Shown here: piece after piece, positions 8,495 to 14,480 of the stretch
How the letters are laid out: each line of letters begins with the position of its first letter
How positions within the stretch are numbered: the first letter of the stretch is position 1
Source of the DNA: Bryobacterales bacterium
GTDB taxonomy: Bacteria; Acidobacteriota; Terriglobia; Bryobacterales; Bryobacteraceae
DNA length: 16,314 nucleotides
NCBI GenBank assembly: GCA_003132905.1
Contig: PKZC01000314.1
Span: 22,424-38,737, forward strand
Direction: 5' to 3'
Program-made: the position numbers and the translations under genes
The notes under the pieces: model-generated
Databases searched by the model: none
What the model was told of the DNA's origin: nothing
Seen by the model: the letters and a program-made list of their open reading frames with translations, nothing else

Positions 8495-8550
8495 GCTTCC
8501 TCCTACTGTAGCAGCTTTCTGCTACTGCATCAGCTTTCTCCTACTGCATC
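8494..8550 (-). repeat. Three tandem copies of a 19-nt repeat between ffh and rpsP
   Basis: On the plus strand the copies are 8494-8512 (tgcttcctcctactgtagc), 8513-8531 (agctttctgctactgcatc) and 8532-8550 (agctttctcctactgcatc). The second and third differ at one base; the first differs from the third at four. Read in the gene direction, the first copy supplies the last codons and stop of ffh, and the last copy supplies the AGGAGG ribosome-binding site of rpsP. The simplest origin is tandem duplication of the ffh end, with the copy next to rpsP diverging to become its Shine-Dalgarno. Confidence 0.85.
8508..8525 (-). promoter_or_regulatory. 7-bp hairpin in the rpsP 5' leader
   Basis: In the transcript GUAGCAG and CUGCUAC form a perfect 7-bp stem (8519-8525 with 8508-8514) around an AAAG loop, four nucleotides before the AGGAGG of rpsP. 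It spans the junction of two repeat copies. It lacks a U-tract, so it is not a terminator. It could tune rpsP translation, protect a processed end, or be an incidental product of the repeat. Role inferred from position only. Confidence 0.45.
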
Positions 8551-9887
8551 ATCGGTAGCTTGAGTTTGCCCAGCCGTTTGCCCAAAAACCCGCCGCCGGT
8601 GATGCTTTTCATCATCTTACGGGCTTGCGCGTATTGCTTTAGCAAGGAGTTTACTTCCTGGACGCTGGTGCCGCTGCCCTTGGCGATCCGCCGACGGCGC
8701 GTCCCATTGATGATCATGTGATTCGCGCGTTCTTTGGCCGTCATCGAATCGATGATTGCCACGATGTGCGTAATCTCATTCTCATCCACCTTCACGTCTT
8801 TCAACTGCTTCATGGGCCCGATCTGCGGCATCATACCCAGCAATGATTCCAGCGGCCCGAGCTTGCGGATCTGCCGCAATTGATCCCGGAAATCCTCGAG
8901 CGTAAACTCGTTGTCCATGAGTTTGCGCTGCATTTCTTCGGCTTGCTTCTGATCGATGTTCTCTTCTACTTTTTCGATCAGCGACAGCACATCGCCCATG
9001 CCCAAAATCCGCTGCGCCACGCGATCCGGATGGAACGGCTCCAGAGCGTCGAATTTCTCGCCCACGCCCACAAACTTGAGCGGCTGATTGGTAATGGAGC
9101 GAATGGAAAGCGCCGCGCCGCCGCGTGCATCGCCGTCCATCTTGGTGAGAATGACGCCCGTGATGCCCAGGCGCTTGTGAAATTCATCGGCCGATTTCAC
9201 GGCATCCTGGCCTGTCATCGCATCGGCCACGAACAAAACTTCCGTCGGATTGAATTCGTCTTTCAATTGCTGCAATTCGAGCATCAGTTGCTCGTCGATG
9301 TGCAATCGTCCGGCGGTGTCAACCAGCACCACGTCGCGGCCCGTTTGCCGCGCTTCCCTCAGCGCCGAACGCGTCAGTTCCAGCGGTTTGGTCTCTTCCG
9401 GCGTGCCATCGTAAATCGGCAGCTTGATGTCGCGCGCAATCACGCTTAACTGCTGCCGCGCGGCCGGACGGTACACGTCCACCGAAACCATGATCGGATT
9501 GTGCCCGTTCTTCGACAGCCAGCGCGCCAGCTTGCCGGTAGTGGTGGTTTTGCCCGATCCCTGCAAACCCACGATCATGATCACCGTCGGCGGCTCGTTC
9601 GCCATCCGCAGCTTCGATTGATGGCTGCCCAGCGTCTTGATCAGCTCATCGCGGACGATCTTCACCACCTGCTGCGCCGGCGATAGCGCGGCCAGCACCT
9701 CTTCGCCCTGCGCCTTTTCCTTGATCGCTTCGATGAACTGCTTCACCACGCGGAAATGGACGTCGGCCTCGAGCAGCGCCACGCGAATCTCGCGCAACGC
9801 GGCGTCCATATTCTCGGCCGTCAATTTCCCTTCGCCGCGCAGGTTCTTGAACACCCGCTGCAGCTTGTCGGATAAGTTATCGAACAT
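8541..9887 (-). CDS. ffh: Signal recognition particle protein Ffh (SRP54 GTPase)
   Basis: The 448-residue protein has the full Ffh layout. The N domain occupies about 1-90. The G domain has P-loop GLQGSGKTTTTGKL (107-120), DVYRPAARQQL, DTAGR (190-194) and TKMDGDARGG (248-257). The methionine-rich M domain is at about 300-448, with the finger region LESLLGMMPQIGPMKQL and the RNA-binding helix-turn-helix RRRRIAKGSGTSVQEVN. It binds 4.5S RNA and signal sequences and docks with FtsY to deliver nascent membrane proteins. The ends carry MFDNLSDKLQ and KLKLPMMQ. It probably has its own promoter (see 9947-9952) and is cotranscribed with rpsP. No 4.5S RNA gene is visible nearby. Confidence 0.98.
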   Translation of the reverse strand: MFDNLSDKLQRVFKNLRGEGKLTAENMDAALREIRVALLEADVHFRVVKQFIEAIKEKAQGEEVLAALSPAQQVVKIVRDELIKTLGSHQSKLRMANEPPTVIMIVGLQGSGKTTTTGKLARWLSKNGHNPIMVSVDVYRPAARQQLSVIARDIKLPIYDGTPEETKPLELTRSALREARQTGRDVVLVDTAGRLHIDEQLMLELQQLKDEFNPTEVLFVADAMTGQDAVKSADEFHKRLGITGVILTKMDGDARGGAALSIRSITNQPLKFVGVGEKFDALEPFHPDRVAQRILGMGDVLSLIEKVEENIDQKQAEEMQRKLMDNEFTLEDFRDQLRQIRKLGPLESLLGMMPQIGPMKQLKDVKVDENEITHIVAIIDSMTAKERANHMIINGTRRRRIAKGSGTSVQEVNSLLKQYAQARKMMKSITGGGFLGKRLGKLKLPMMQ

Positions 9888-9976: not shown

Positions 9977-11830
9977 TTAACCGCGCGCAGCCGATACCGA
10001 TTCTCTGCGGAAAATCTGCGCTCGGTCCTCTGCAGACAAATAGGGCGATTGCAGCCGCACCGGATCGCCGATGCTCAGAAAGAACAGGTCACCGTTCCCC
10101 AGCAGCCGTTCGGCGCCCGACTGGTTAATGATCATGTTCGACTGCGTGTAATTGGCAACGCGCAGGCAAACACGCCCGCTCAGATTCATTTTGAGGGCGC
10201 CACCCACCGTCTTGCGGTCCGGATATTGCGTAGCAATAATCAAATGAATGCCAGCGGCGCGTGCCTTGGCGCCCAGGCGCGTGATGGCAGTCTCCAAGCT
10301 CTTTGTGGTGGCCCGATCGGCCAATAAATCGGCATATTCGTCGCAGACGCACACGATTCTCGGCAGCACATTGCGCGTCTTCGCCTGATATTCCGGCAGA
10401 TCGCTGGCCAGGTTTTGCTCAAACAACTTGTACCGCCGTTCCATCTCTTCGATGAGAGAATCAAGCACATCTAAAGCGGAATGCTCCGGCGGATAGACCA
10501 AGCCGCTCGGACCGTAAAGGAAGGGCGATTCCTTGAGTTCGGCAAACGCGGTCCGCTTAGGATCGATCAGCACCAGGCGCAGAGTCTCGGGTGTGTTAGA
10601 GAGCATCAGGCCGGCGATGGCCGAACGCAGCCATTCACTTTTCCCGCTGCCTGCGGTGCCAGCGACCAATAAATGCGGATTGTTCGATGACGCCAGATCG
10701 ACAAATTGCAAGCGCCCGTTCAGATCCATGCCCAGGGGCGCACGCGAGCAGCCACGGCCGTCAGCCCCGGGAAGTTGCTCGAGAATGGAGCTAAAAGATA
10801 CCGTCTGTGGATCGGGCCTGGCGATGTCAATCACCAGACGGCCCGAAGCGATGTGAATCATCGGCTCGGTAGGGGTTTTCAGGTGTATGCCTAATTCTTC
10901 CGATACCCCTCTCAATTGCCTCATTTTGAACTGGCGTCCAGGGATCATGAAATAACGCAAGAATCTTGGACCTGTGGAGAGTTCGCTCTTCCATTCCACC
11001 GGTACGCCATAATGTCCGAGCACGCGCACCAGTTGTTTGCCGAGGTTCACATGCTGTTCACTGGCGGTGGGCATGGGTGACGGCGTAGCCTGGGGCAACA
11101 CGTTGGCCAGCCGTCCGATCAATGAACGAAGAGCGGATTGTGCCTCCAATAACTCCGCGCTTTGATAGAACCGCTCAGCGAGCTCCGGTTCAAAGGTAAT
11201 GACAGCCAGGGCGCCGTCCGCGGATGTAAGACGGTTCGCTGACAGCATGGAATGATATAGGCACGCTTGCGCCAGATCCGCTTCAGGGCGGGGCCGGCCG
11301 AGCTTATACTCGAGCACGCACCAGCGTCCCGACTCCGGATTCTTCCAAAGCGCGTCGGCGATGCCCAACACCTGGACCGCAGCCGTCCAATGCGGCTCCT
11401 TCACTTCCCAGCGCAATTCCAACTCGGGCTGGCAAAGCCCGTCCGCTCCCAACCAGGACCGTTGCCGAGCGTCATAACGGATGGTCCCACGTTGCTCGGC
11501 TGCAGTAAGCAGGCTGCAGAGCCACGTGCAGACTCCTTGCACCGCCTCCCACAAATCCATCGCCTCCGCGCCGCATTCGCGCAATCCAGCCTGCATCTCG
11601 GTTAGCCGTGGACCGAGCAGTTTCTCATAAGCGTGAATGGCCAGACGAGCCGAATCGCCTAGTTCACCAGGCTCTAACGCCGCTCGCCAGCCATTCGGAC
11701 CCATCAGGCCTGCCAGCACCTGGTGGAATAACGTTCCGGTGACGGCGTTCGATGGCGACTCGGTGGCGGCATAATCGCCCACTGTTCGAAGCAGCTCACG
11801 ACGAATGTCGGAAATGGAAAGTTGCGCCAC
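9977..11830 (-). CDS. RecB-family PD-(D/E)XK nuclease fused to a soluble FtsK/SpoIIIE motor
   Basis: This is a 617-residue protein from GTG 11830, chosen because GAGG (11839-11842) lies 8 nt upstream and it begins 13 nt after the preceding stop; an ATG at 11932 would overlap the ATPase gene by 89 bp. N-terminal part (about 20-215) has RecB/Cas4 nuclease motifs: His36 in VTGTLFHQVL, PELELRWEV, Asp159 in LGIADALW, Glu174-Tyr-Lys176 in VLEYKLG and Gln188 in LAQACLY. Next is an FtsK alpha-like domain (about 260-355, LVRVLGHYGVPVEW), then the beta motor: Walker A GTAGSGKS (391-398), IDPK, Walker B IVCVCDEY with Asp497/Glu498, IIATQYPDRKTVGGALKMNL, and INQSGAERLLGNGDLFF. Membrane segments and the gamma domain that reads KOPS are absent. 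I infer a DNA pump that feeds or positions an attached nuclease; DNA polarity and target are unknown. Confidence 0.85.
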   Translation of the reverse strand: MAQLSISDIRRELLRTVGDYAATESPSNAVTGTLFHQVLAGLMGPNGWRAALEPGELGDSARLAIHAYEKLLGPRLTEMQAGLRECGAEAMDLWEAVQGVCTWLCSLLTAAEQRGTIRYDARQRSWLGADGLCQPELELRWEVKEPHWTAAVQVLGIADALWKNPESGRWCVLEYKLGRPRPEADLAQACLYHSMLSANRLTSADGALAVITFEPELAERFYQSAELLEAQSALRSLIGRLANVLPQATPSPMPTASEQHVNLGKQLVRVLGHYGVPVEWKSELSTGPRFLRYFMIPGRQFKMRQLRGVSEELGIHLKTPTEPMIHIASGRLVIDIARPDPQTVSFSSILEQLPGADGRGCSRAPLGMDLNGRLQFVDLASSNNPHLLVAGTAGSGKSEWLRSAIAGLMLSNTPETLRLVLIDPKRTAFAELKESPFLYGPSGLVYPPEHSALDVLDSLIEEMERRYKLFEQNLASDLPEYQAKTRNVLPRIVCVCDEYADLLADRATTKSLETAITRLGAKARAAGIHLIIATQYPDRKTVGGALKMNLSGRVCLRVANYTQSNMIINQSGAERLLGNGDLFFLSIGDPVRLQSPYLSAEDRAQIFRRESVSAARG

Positions 11831-11843
11831 GAACCGATCCTCG

Positions 11844-13667
11844 TTATCCGCCGTCGGAGGCGGCAACGGGTTGAAAAAGCGCTGGAGTGCGGCCGCCCAA
11901 AACGCCAAACTGCCGCGGATCACGACGCGCACACTCTTCCACCTCCCCAGCCCTCACCTCCAACGAACGAGCAGCATCTTCCAGTGTGACCATCTTCCGC
12001 TCAGCGAGCAAGGCCGCGAGCGCGGCCGTGATTCGATCCGAGCCTGGCGAGATCGGTTCAGTGGCATCGGCGCCAACCTCGGCCAGCAGCGGATCCAGCG
12101 CGGCCGGTAGATGTCCCGCGATCCACCGTTCCACTGCGCCGGGCGTAACCGATTCCCCGTGATGCGCCAGATCGCCGCTCTCGGCGTCTGAAAGCAGTCG
12201 GCGAAGCGCAGCCAGAGCTTCCATCGCCTCTTCGGAAACCGTCACCAGGCGCCCGCCTTGCGCCTCCATGTCAGCGATCCGTTGCCGAGCTACTTTGGCT
12301 TTGGTTGAAATTGTCAATCGCGCGTCTCGGAGCAGGAGTAACGTCTGTTTGGCTCCCGGATTCCATGCGCCAGAAACCTTTTTCAACCGGCTCGCCAGCG
12401 AAGTCATGTTGGTTTGGTTGACGATCGCGACGGCAATGCTCCCGCCGTCCGTTATGAAATCGATCGGGGAACGCTCTCCCGCAGCCGAACACTTCGATCC
12501 AGCCGCTCGGACGAACAGCGGTATCCCATTTCGGAGGATCGCGTCCGTTTCCGAAGGATCTTTTCGGGTAAAGCGCTCGTCGAGCATTTTCTGGAGCGCC
12601 GCATCGAGAGGCTCTACCGGCTCAGCCCGGCCATTCCGCCATAAATCGAACAGATCTTTGCAGCGTGAAATGATGGCTCGCGCCGCCGCAGCGTTGCCCT
12701 TGAAGATCTCCAGAATCCTCGCTTCGTCCAGTGGCCAGCAGCCGCCCTGCGCAGCTCGCTCGGCTGCAAGTTCCGGTATGGTGTCGAGCCGAGCTTCAAT
12801 AAGACGCTGCGCCTGTTCCCAAGACAGCGGATGAATCGGAGCGCGGCGACCAAGCATTTTCGACTGTGCCGCATTGTCGAGTATCTGCTCCATTCGCATT
12901 ACGAGGCCGGTCTGAAGACAGCAAATGGTGCTGCTGTTGCACGTCTCTTCTACCAGAGCGGAAACGAGCCTACCCACGGCATGAGGACCATCTCGATCCT
13001 CGGGGGAACTCATGACCGCCTCGATCTGATCCATACAATAGACGACCACACCAGGCCGAATTAGCTCACATAACGACAGAACAACGTGTCGCGAAGTGAC
13101 TTCTGAATCGTCATCAAATCCCGGGCTTGATAATTGCAAGGAATTCAGAACCTCGTCTGGCAAGCCCTCGCCGCGCAGCCAAGCGGCACAATCGCGAGTG
13201 TGCTTTCCTCGCAGAAGATTCTCCAGCACAATGCTCAGGTCGCGGTGGGAAAACATCTCCAAATCGCCGTTCCGTGGCTCAAGCAGACGATCCAGAACAC
13301 GGATACCATTCGCATCGGAGCGTAACAAAGCAAGCGCCATCGACCGACGTAAATGCCTCCAGATGCCCGCCGGAGAAGTCTCCATGCGAACGAACACGAA
13401 GAGATTCTCAGGTTTCGATTCCAGCCAACGCCGAACTCTTCCGATCAGATGCGTTTTCCCCGTACCCGCGTCGCCGAAAACCGTAAGCGCCGCAGAAAAT
13501 CCACCAGCGGCGACATCCTGAGCGAGTTTCTGGCAGGCTTCAAAAGCTTCTGAGTTGATCTCGGCTATATCCACTTGGGCATCATCCAACGGCTGCCCGA
13601 CTAAGTGTCCGAACGGGTTCGCAGAAGCACGTTCAGCGGATTGCAATGGCGACGTAGTAGGTTCCAT
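11844..13667 (-). CDS. P-loop (AAA/STAND-like) ATPase of the nuclease–FtsK cassette
   Basis: This is a 607-residue protein. The ATPase core (about 40-300) has Walker A VFGDAGTGKTHL (Gly65-Thr72), Walker B VVVYCMDQIE (Asp213, with Gln214 where a catalytic Glu is usual), and SSTICCLQTGL resembling a sensor-1 strand. A second half (about 375-500) has a possible degenerate alpha/beta nuclease-like fold around SPIDFITDGGSIAVAIVNQT, followed by QTLLLLRDARLTIS. A C-terminal winged-helix-like tail occupies about 540-600. The 'DQ.E' Walker B recalls STAND-type switches more than processive AAA+ machines, but the family is not one I can name. The start at 13667 overlaps the winged-helix gene by 35 bp and has no clear Shine-Dalgarno; TTG 13646 is an alternative. 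I infer a switch or loader for the downstream translocase. Confidence 0.8.
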   Translation of the reverse strand: MEPTTSPLQSAERASANPFGHLVGQPLDDAQVDIAEINSEAFEACQKLAQDVAAGGFSAALTVFGDAGTGKTHLIGRVRRWLESKPENLFVFVRMETSPAGIWRHLRRSMALALLRSDANGIRVLDRLLEPRNGDLEMFSHRDLSIVLENLLRGKHTRDCAAWLRGEGLPDEVLNSLQLSSPGFDDDSEVTSRHVVLSLCELIRPGVVVYCMDQIEAVMSSPEDRDGPHAVGRLVSALVEETCNSSTICCLQTGLVMRMEQILDNAAQSKMLGRRAPIHPLSWEQAQRLIEARLDTIPELAAERAAQGGCWPLDEARILEIFKGNAAAARAIISRCKDLFDLWRNGRAEPVEPLDAALQKMLDERFTRKDPSETDAILRNGIPLFVRAAGSKCSAAGERSPIDFITDGGSIAVAIVNQTNMTSLASRLKKVSGAWNPGAKQTLLLLRDARLTISTKAKVARQRIADMEAQGGRLVTVSEEAMEALAALRRLLSDAESGDLAHHGESVTPGAVERWIAGHLPAALDPLLAEVGADATEPISPGSDRITAALAALLAERKMVTLEDAARSLEVRAGEVEECARRDPRQFGVLGGRTPALFQPVAASDGG

Positions 13668-14436
13668 CTTGGCCGTCGATCAAAAGATTCTTGTCTTCCT
13701 CAGATAGATTGTACGGATCGGCATGTTGACTCAAAAATACTTGCTCTTTCCTGCGCAACTCCAGGGCTGCCGCGTCGAACTCCTGTTTCAACAGCTTCGG
13801 AAGATAATTCCGCAATCGCAGCGTCGATACAGGCACGCCCTTCACCGGTTCGAGCGACCGCACGGCATCCAGGATGAGCGCGGGGGCGTCAGACTCTGTG
13901 ATGGTTAGTTTATCACCGGGCAATGAATTCTCCGAAAAAAATGGCGCCGCATCAAATCCCGCCGCACGAAATTTTTTTTCTATGAAAGTACGTGCGGCAT
14001 TGAAATAAGCGTTACTGTCACCAGTGCGCACCAGTAGTTTCGCGCCGCTCGCGAAGGCCGGGACTTGTTGCAGTTGCTTGTCGGCCACCAAAGCCGAAAC
14101 AACATTTTCCAGTTTTTTGGCGGGAAATCCGGGCAGCTTCTTGGCCGCTACTTTGCTCAAATCTGTTTTCGAAAAGGCTCCGGAGGCAGCGGATAGAATC
14201 GCCTCCCGTGCCTTTTCCTCTGACGAAACACTCCAAAAGTATTCAGACTTGCGATAATCCGGCCAGCGATATACCTGACCCGCCTCGATCAGCGATTCAA
14301 TCGCCGCCTGGAAGCTCTCATCCTTGGCCTTCAAAAGCTTCGCAAGAGCTTTGAACGAGATCGGCTTCTTTGCCTGACGCACCGCGGCGACAACGCGCTC
14401 GCGAAGATCCTGCTGCGGAATTGCGGGTGCAGACAT
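13633..14436 (-). CDS. Multi-winged-helix protein, first gene of the nuclease–FtsK cassette
   Basis: This is a 267-residue basic protein (pattern seen, family not named). It appears to contain three winged-helix modules. wH1 (about 10-70) has KKPISFKALAKLLKA, then IESLIEAGQVYRWPD and a strand pair ending YFWSVS. wH2 (about 73-138) has EAILSAASGAFSKTDLSK, then VVSALVADKQLQQVP and AKLLVRTG. wH3 (about 185-267) has VPVSTLRLRNYLPKLLKQ, then ALELRRKEQVFLSQHADP, ending in the strand GTYYVAIAI. A linker (about 140-180) contains YFNAARTFIEKKF. Each helix-helix-wing repeat fits double-stranded DNA binding or a protein-bridging adaptor. Its stop lies 35 bp inside the ATPase gene, so the two are probably translationally coupled. 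No strong Shine-Dalgarno precedes the ATG. Confidence 0.75.
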   Translation of the reverse strand: MSAPAIPQQDLRERVVAAVRQAKKPISFKALAKLLKAKDESFQAAIESLIEAGQVYRWPDYRKSEYFWSVSSEEKAREAILSAASGAFSKTDLSKVAAKKLPGFPAKKLENVVSALVADKQLQQVPAFASGAKLLVRTGDSNAYFNAARTFIEKKFRAAGFDAAPFFSENSLPGDKLTITESDAPALILDAVRSLEPVKGVPVSTLRLRNYLPKLLKQEFDAAALELRRKEQVFLSQHADPYNLSEEDKNLLIDGQDGTYYVAIAIR

Positions 14437-14480
14437 GCTATAAGCTTACGTGAACCGCTCCGACGCGGTATAACAACAGC
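14437..14480. promoter_or_regulatory. 44-bp divergent control region with inverted repeats
   Basis: This gap separates the cassette (minus) from the SMP-30-like gene (plus). It contains a TAAGCTTA palindrome (14441-14448), a 5-bp inverted repeat ACCGC/GCGGT with a 6-nt spacer (14454-14458 and 14465-14469), and TATAAC (14469-14474). Two full promoters cannot fit without overlapping each other or the genes. The repeats are short enough to be chance; an operator for the winged-helix protein is a possibility only. Confidence 0.3.

What the first reader, a model, noticed from the sequence alone, without database searches (positions are those of the whole stretch)
9977..14436. Three-gene cassette: winged-helix protein, P-loop ATPase, nuclease–FtsK fusion
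Three minus-strand genes are packed with a 35-bp overlap and a 13-nt gap, so they are very probably made together. The parts form a plausible DNA-processing machine: a multi-winged-helix binder, a P-loop switch or loader, and a translocase carrying a nuclease. It differs from the systems I considered: BREX (no methylase, PglZ or BrxL), DISARM, DndFGH/Ssp (no phosphorothioation genes, much smaller translocase), HerA–DUF4297/SIR2 pairs, and Wadjet (no SMC). It may act in defence against foreign DNA, in plasmid exclusion, or in end resection or recombination like HerA–NurA. Function is inferred; the domain calls and gene order are seen directly.
Basis: partly seen in the sequence, partly recalled or inferred. 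Interest (0 to 1): 0.85.

Follow-up and report, generated by a model that had tools for sequence, protein, structure and literature searches.

The report
Orc/Cdc6–FtsK nuclease capture cassette
Three tightly packed genes encode a DNA-reading protein, a ring-type loader ATPase and a DNA pump joined to a nuclease; together they look like an untested example of an already predicted kind of bacterial machine for catching and cutting invading DNA.

Summary
Gene 1 (267 aa) models as three tandem winged helices. Gene 2 (607 aa) is an Orc/Cdc6-type AAA+ ATPase with a C-terminal winged helix. Between the two lies an alpha/beta domain whose strand order resembles a restriction nuclease but whose catalytic (D/E)xK position is lost. 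Gene 3 (617 aa) joins an apparently intact PD-(D/E)XK nuclease to an FtsK-alpha domain and FtsK motor. The same order recurs in Planctomycetota, Myxococcota and Desulfobacterota; in Minicystis genes 2 and 3 are fused. This matches closely the Orc/CDC6-coupled "HerA/FtsK capture" neighbourhoods predicted by Rakesh, Aravind and Krishnan (PMC10853773). It is therefore a new member of a known, computationally predicted kind. PADLOC's 2023 models do not name it. Best reading: an ATP-driven machine that recognises DNA, loads on it, pumps it and cuts it, directed against invading DNA (defence is inferred). Distant relatives swap FtsK for HerA; single loci have a caspase-like or a GHKL-ATPase gene in place of gene 3, so genes 1 and 2 may be a general sensor platform. 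The window's neighbours (ffh, rpsP, ruvC, yebC) are housekeeping genes, so domestication remains a live rival.

The parts
13633..14436 (-). gene 1: 267 aa, three tandem winged-helix domains (about residues 8-68, 72-137, 181-266)
   Evidence: ORF; AlphaFold2 model, mean pLDDT 86.2; the best fold matches are winged-helix proteins
11844..13667 (-). gene 2: 607 aa, Orc/Cdc6-type AAA+ (about 13-346), alpha/beta nuclease-like domain without catalytic ExK (about 371-496), C-terminal winged helix (about 541-598)
9977..11830 (-). gene 3: 617 aa, N-terminal PD-(D/E)XK nuclease of RecB/Cas4 look (H36, D159, E174, K176, Q188, Y192), FtsK-alpha, FtsK motor (Walker A to K397, Walker B D497-E498)
   Evidence: Pfam (on the longer 11932 frame); invariant columns in a 23-row alignment
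14437..14480 (.). 44-bp spacer between gene 1 and the divergent SMP-30-like gene; presumed promoter region
   Evidence: ORF boundaries; no sigma-70-like site was reported there
8541..9887 (-). ffh (signal recognition particle GTPase), next gene downstream on the same strand; context, not part of the machine
   Evidence: SRP54 E 5.6e-73; 89-bp gap in which no terminator-like site was reported and a promoter-like site at 9971-9944 was

Best explanation
The three genes encode an Orc/Cdc6-coupled FtsK capture machine that restricts invading DNA. Gene 1, with three winged helices, reads DNA. Gene 2, an Orc/Cdc6-type AAA+ ATPase with a non-catalytic nuclease-like domain and a C-terminal winged helix, assembles on that DNA in an ATP-dependent way and recruits gene 3. 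Gene 3 forms an FtsK-type hexameric pump on double-stranded DNA, and its N-terminal nuclease cuts the DNA as it is pumped. Shown: the genes, their domains (by profile or model), motif conservation, gene order, and the gene 2-gene 3 fusion in Minicystis. Inferred: complex formation, pumping, cleavage, the target and the defence role. How self DNA is spared is unknown; no methylase was found among the window proteins searched.
For: Packing. Same order in loci found by gene 2: among the nine loci with a near-full-length gene 2 (L001-L007, L132, L133) gene 1 lies next door in 9 and gene 3 next door or fused in 8; L006 lacks it. Gene 2-gene 3 fusion, 1314 aa, in Minicystis rosea. Nuclease and motor residues invariant in a 23-row alignment. 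Cdc6/Orc and TnsC folds for gene 2. Patchy occurrence in sampled Myxococcota, Planctomycetota and Desulfobacterota (lower bounds). A D12 adenine methylase 44 bp upstream of gene 1 in L005, and AbiEi about 4 kb upstream in L004. Published prediction of anti-invader function for this architecture (PMC10853773 sections 22 and 26).
Against: The window is no defence island: 0 of 10 neighbouring window proteins matched PADLOC and those with Pfam names are housekeeping genes. Of 7 neighbours of near-full-length loci sent to PADLOC, 2 had hits (L005 methylase, L004 AbiEi). No experiment was found. The nuclease fold of the gene 2 insert rests on strand order alone: no profile link to gene 3's nuclease, and the domain was not folded or searched by itself. 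39 of the last 40 listed gene 3 homologues (48-54% identical) could not be tied to a gene 1 or gene 2 hit, so gene 3 may also work without them.
Confidence: 0.6

Rival explanations
1. A domesticated genome-maintenance machine: an old capture system settled beside ffh-rpsP that now processes DNA ends or rescues chromosomes, in the manner of HerA-NurA.
For: Housekeeping neighbours on both sides and no PADLOC neighbour (0 of 10); 105 gene 2 hits at 50-98% identity; where a source gives a taxon for gene 1 or gene 2 hits it is Bryobacteraceae (1 of 111 and 4 of 120 hits named); the three genes diverge in step on shared contigs, r 0.87-0.92.
Against: In the other phyla sampled the cassette is rare, and relatives exchange pump and partner genes, which is unusual for repair machines (my judgement). 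Linked genes diverging in step says nothing about function. Synteny in close relatives could not be checked, and most hits bear no taxon name.
Confidence: 0.22
2. A module of a mobile element, or a barrier to conjugation or plasmids rather than to phages: the pump intercepts DNA during transfer.
For: The published proposal names interception during segregation, transfer or packaging and calls these neighbourhoods mobile; L004 has AbiEi and, by eye, a recombinase-like gene.
Against: No tRNA in the window and no integrase or relaxase family among the 17 window proteins sent to Pfam; no match to gene 2 in 72,556 plasmid or 50,697 phage records; 11 viral-contig loci match only short stretches at 24-36% identity.
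Confidence: 0.1
3. A reduced DndFGH/SspFGH: gene 1 as DndG, gene 2 as DndF, gene 3 as the C-terminal part of DndH, acting with a DNA modification made elsewhere.
For: Gene 3's motor matches SspH at E 9.4e-58, profile positions 1471-1761 of 1766; DndG also has three winged helices (paper passage).
Against: Only the motor matches; gene 2 has no DndF/SspF hit and is of Orc/Cdc6 fold, whereas the paper describes DndF as a P-loop kinase; gene 3 lacks most DndH domains described there.
Confidence: 0.05

Closest known systems
Orc/CDC6-coupled HerA/FtsK capture neighbourhoods (Rakesh, Aravind, Krishnan 2024, PMC10853773 section 22)
   Same: Orc/Cdc6 AAA+ with a domain between the AAA+ core and the C-terminal winged helix; active nuclease; HerA/FtsK pump, one set with FtsK-alpha; in a subset a further protein with 2-4 winged helices; fused and split arrangements
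   Different: Main-text searches of that paper gave 0 for 'acidobacteria' and 'planctomycetes', 'recb', 'cas4' and 'bryobacter'. Whether its 'active REase' families include this one could not be told, because figures and supplements are not held
DndFGH / SspFGH
   Same: Triple winged-helix protein, P-loop protein, and FtsK-type motor with a nuclease
   Different: Different P-loop family for gene 2; gene 3 lacks the helicase-like, methylase-like and target-recognition parts described for DndH
BREX BrxC and BREX-related capture systems (PMC12839542, passages only)
   Different: No PglZ or methylase family among the window proteins searched
HerA-NurA
   Same: Hexameric pump feeding DNA to a nuclease
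   Different: Pump is FtsK-type with FtsK-alpha, nuclease is fused and of PDDEXK_1 type, and two further proteins are present
TnsC AAA+ regulators of Tn7-like elements
   Different: No transposase family among the window proteins searched

Membership tests
Orc/CDC6-coupled HerA/FtsK capture system | Orc/CDC6-family AAA+ ATPase | tested here: met
Orc/CDC6-coupled HerA/FtsK capture system | A domain placed between the AAA+ core and a C-terminal winged helix | tested here: met
   Model: AAA+ to about 346, alpha/beta domain 371-496, winged helix 541-598
Orc/CDC6-coupled HerA/FtsK capture system | That domain is an inactive restriction-endonuclease fold | tested here: inconclusive
   Strand order helix, three strands, helix, strand fits; at the places of ExK, E occurs in 1 of 67 rows and K in 0 of 67, while D403 is kept in 53 of 67; but no profile link to gene 3's nuclease (hhalign probability 0.1) and the domain alone was not folded or searched
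Orc/CDC6-coupled HerA/FtsK capture system | Active REase | tested here: met
   PDDEXK_1 25.1 bits, cut-off 22; H36, D159, E174, K176, Q188, Y192 invariant in 23 rows. Activity itself is inferred, and whether this is one of the paper's two families could not be tested
Orc/CDC6-coupled HerA/FtsK capture system | HerA/FtsK pump, in one set with FtsK-alpha | tested here: met
   FtsK_SpoIIIE E 1.6e-31; FtsK_alpha 20.2 bits, just under its 22.9 cut-off, and 46.3 and 37.2 bits in relatives L104 and L105
Orc/CDC6-coupled HerA/FtsK capture system | In a subset: protein with 2-4 winged helices related to DndG/SspB/FokI | tested here: inconclusive
   Three winged helices are met; specific kinship to DndG/SspB/FokI is not shown by the rows listed
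DndFGH / SspFGH | DndF/SspF-type P-loop protein | tested here: not met
   Gene 2's only PADLOC row at E up to 1 is Avs2, 15 bits; Orc/Cdc6 fold instead
DndFGH / SspFGH | DndH/SspH full-length architecture | tested here: not met
   Best row covers only profile positions 1471-1761 of 1766
BREX / BREX-related capture | PglZ (and, for BREX, a methylase) in the locus | tested here: not met
   None among the 17 window proteins sent to Pfam nor, in PADLOC, among 10 neighbours and the trio; the window is 16 kb, so genes further off are not covered
HerA-NurA | HerA pump with NurA nuclease | tested here: not met
   HerA central domain only E 0.27 in gene 3; its nuclease matches PDDEXK_1 and no NurA family is listed
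Any capture or defence system | Protection against phage, plasmid or conjugation | not testable with these tools
   Needs a bench test

The most novel reading that the evidence does not exclude
Genes 1 and 2 are a general DNA-sensing platform (winged-helix reader plus Orc/Cdc6 loader with a dead nuclease domain) onto which evolution docks interchangeable effectors: FtsK-nuclease as here, HerA-nuclease, or other effectors such as a caspase-like protease or a GHKL ATPase.
Probability: 0.3. Interest if true: 0.65.

Novelty: new member of a known kind. Interest (0 to 1): 0.42.

Why it matters
HerA/FtsK capture systems were proposed from sequence and structure comparison, and my paper searches found no experiment on the Orc/Cdc6 kind. 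This cassette is compact (three genes, 4.5 kb) and has intact-looking nuclease and motor residues, so it is a practical test case for whether a motor of the chromosome-segregation type can be turned into a DNA-capturing nuclease. Its housekeeping setting also makes it possible to ask whether such a system can be domesticated.

Tried and rejected
Rejected or limited: (a) a new category: the architecture is in print. (b) Reduced DndFGH: gene 2 is another family. (c) Phage or plasmid origin: no gene 2 match in plasmids or phages, only short matches in viral contigs. (d) A profile link between gene 2's insert and gene 3's nuclease: none. (e) DndG, SspB, BrxA or FokI among fold matches of gene 1: not in the rows listed, which excludes nothing. 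(f) Rfam: 0 matches at gathering score. (g) tRNA as insertion site: none found.

So whether the cassette is fixed beside ffh in its own group stays open. That the window is from Bryobacteraceae is itself an inference from the few named hits. All three large protein searches went to the cassette, so ffh could not serve as a yardstick. The gene 2 search scored only 7990 candidates and the gene 3 search 7996, those sharing most words. In the phylum searches only a few candidates per genome were scored (for example 4 of 99 for one genome), so counts are lower bounds.

Rows chosen or dropped: alignments used a hand-picked part of the hits (gene 2: 58 of 111 plus 8 locus proteins; gene 1: 54 of 120 listed plus 7; gene 3: 17 of 120 listed plus 5).

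Full report
Observation. Other window genes with Pfam names are an aminoacyl-tRNA editing protein, YebC, RuvC, a thioredoxin-like protein, a Metalloenzyme-family protein (deoB-like by eye), triosephosphate isomerase, ribosomal S16, SRP54 (ffh) and an SMP-30-like protein. None of 10 neighbouring window proteins matches PADLOC. ffh follows gene 3 on the same strand after 89 bp; no terminator-like site and one promoter-like site were reported in that gap. With 3 promoter-like sites found against 1.7 expected in the region, that site is no evidence by itself.

Relatives. Gene 2 has 111 hits, of which 105 are 50-98% identical and six 30-33%; gene 1 has 148 hits (120 listed); gene 3 has 1923 (120 listed). 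Few hits bear a taxon name; those that do for genes 1 and 2 (4 and 1) say Bryobacteraceae, and for gene 3 two say Bryobacteraceae and one Acidobacteriia/Terriglobia. The genome scan with a gene 2 alignment gave 13 loci: seven near full length (six planctomycete-labelled records and Minicystis rosea), two Desulfobacterales-type and four actinobacterial ones with partial matches. By BLAST from the window's own proteins, gene 1 was found beside gene 2 in 6 of the 7 (not L007) and gene 3 beside or fused in 6 of the 7 (not L006). Profiles trained partly on these loci raise gene 1 to 7 of 7. Two Desulfobacterota loci not used in training, L132 and L133, show the same order, gene 3 being cut by the contig end in L133. 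The loci were chosen by gene 2, so this tests adjacency of genes 1 and 3, not how often gene 3 stands alone.

Distribution. With gene 2 alignments, 26 of 188 sampled Myxococcota, 30 of 294 Planctomycetota and 38 of 247 Desulfobacterota genomes have a match at E 0.001 or better; many of these are short matches in the ATPase region. Apart from the genomes used as centres, near-full-length strong matches were seen in 0, 0 and 2 (G537, G547). The zero for Planctomycetota may be low: a gene 3 alignment found a strong second case, G447 (E 1.9e-175), at a contig edge, and L002, L003, L004, L006 and L007 come from further genomes found by the scan. With that gene 3 alignment 247 of 294 Planctomycetota match at 1e-40, but in the part of the list shown most matches cover only the motor half, as cellular FtsK would; matches reaching into the nuclease half are G001, G447, G389 and G469, and three more strong ones (G331, G388, G485) lie in fusion proteins. 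So in these samples the cassette is rare and patchy.

Modular relatives. In more distant relatives gene 2 is fused to FtsK (L101, L105, L107; in L101 and L105, the two scanned, no PDDEXK_1 was listed at E 0.01) or to HerA (L096, L097, L011, L013), or lies beside a PDDEXK-HerA protein (L093; L103 with HerA below cut-off) or a PDDEXK-FtsK one (L090, L091, L104; L135 by profile). In one Desulfobacterales locus the open frame that begins 3 bp after gene 2 encodes a caspase-domain protein (L008, Peptidase_C14 E 1.3e-35; an in-frame ATG lies 18 codons on), and in one planctomycete-phylum locus gene 2 is followed by a GHKL-type ATPase (L106, HATPase_c_3 E 2.1e-10). These are single cases. In many other gene 2-like loci I did not identify a partner (for example L009, L136, L137, L138, L098-L100). 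The capture-system paper's main text has 0 'caspase' and 0 'GHKL'.

Known systems. Rakesh, Aravind and Krishnan (PMC10853773; I read the abstract and outline, sections 22 and 26, and passages) describe neighbourhoods with an Orc/CDC6 ATPase, an inactive REase always placed between the AAA+ core and the C-terminal winged helix, an active REase, a HerA/FtsK pump (one set with FtsK-alpha) and, in a subset, a protein with 2-4 winged helices. The window's cassette meets these, except that the inactive REase fold and the DndG kinship stay inconclusive and the identity of the active REase family cannot be compared, because figures and supplements are not held. The 2026 BREX paper (PMC12839542, passages only) describes a related but richer system. 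Paper searches for experiments on this kind found none (listings only, apart from the two papers named); the library lacks most subscription journals and preprints.

Mechanism. I commit to recognition by gene 1, ATP-dependent loading by gene 2, and pumping with cleavage by gene 3, directed at invading DNA (confidence 0.6; class membership itself about 0.85). Shown are domains, motifs, order and fusion; the rest is inference. Against it stand the housekeeping surroundings and the absence of any test, which is why domestication keeps 0.22.

Noticed in passing
L008:5908-7026 (+): A caspase-domain protein with a peptidoglycan-binding domain follows a gene 2-like ATPase in a Desulfobacterales contig, in the place of the pump-nuclease.
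   Followed up: partly
L106:124-1950 (-): A GHKL-type (HATPase_c_3) protein overlaps the end of a gene 2-like ATPase by 4 bp, with a gene 1-like protein upstream (profile E 2e-6).
   Followed up: partly
L005:7008-7973 (+): In Minicystis rosea a D12-class adenine methylase lies 44 bp upstream of the gene 1 frame, a possible self-marking partner.
   Followed up: partly
L105:10378-11628 (+): A protein kinase follows a fused ATPase-FtsK gene; it resembles kinases of several defence systems in PADLOC (mad6 E 3.7e-41, PD-T4-6).
   Followed up: partly
   Followed up: partly
L006:3243-5114 (+): A gene 1-gene 2 pair whose gene 2 match ends early and which has no gene 3 next to it; possibly decayed or a variant.
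   Followed up: no
L132:10476-12885 (+): Downstream of a Desulfobacterota cassette, past an acyl-CoA dehydrogenase-like gene, lie proteins that look by eye like a nucleotidyltransferase toxin-antitoxin pair and ORF6N proteins.
   Followed up: no
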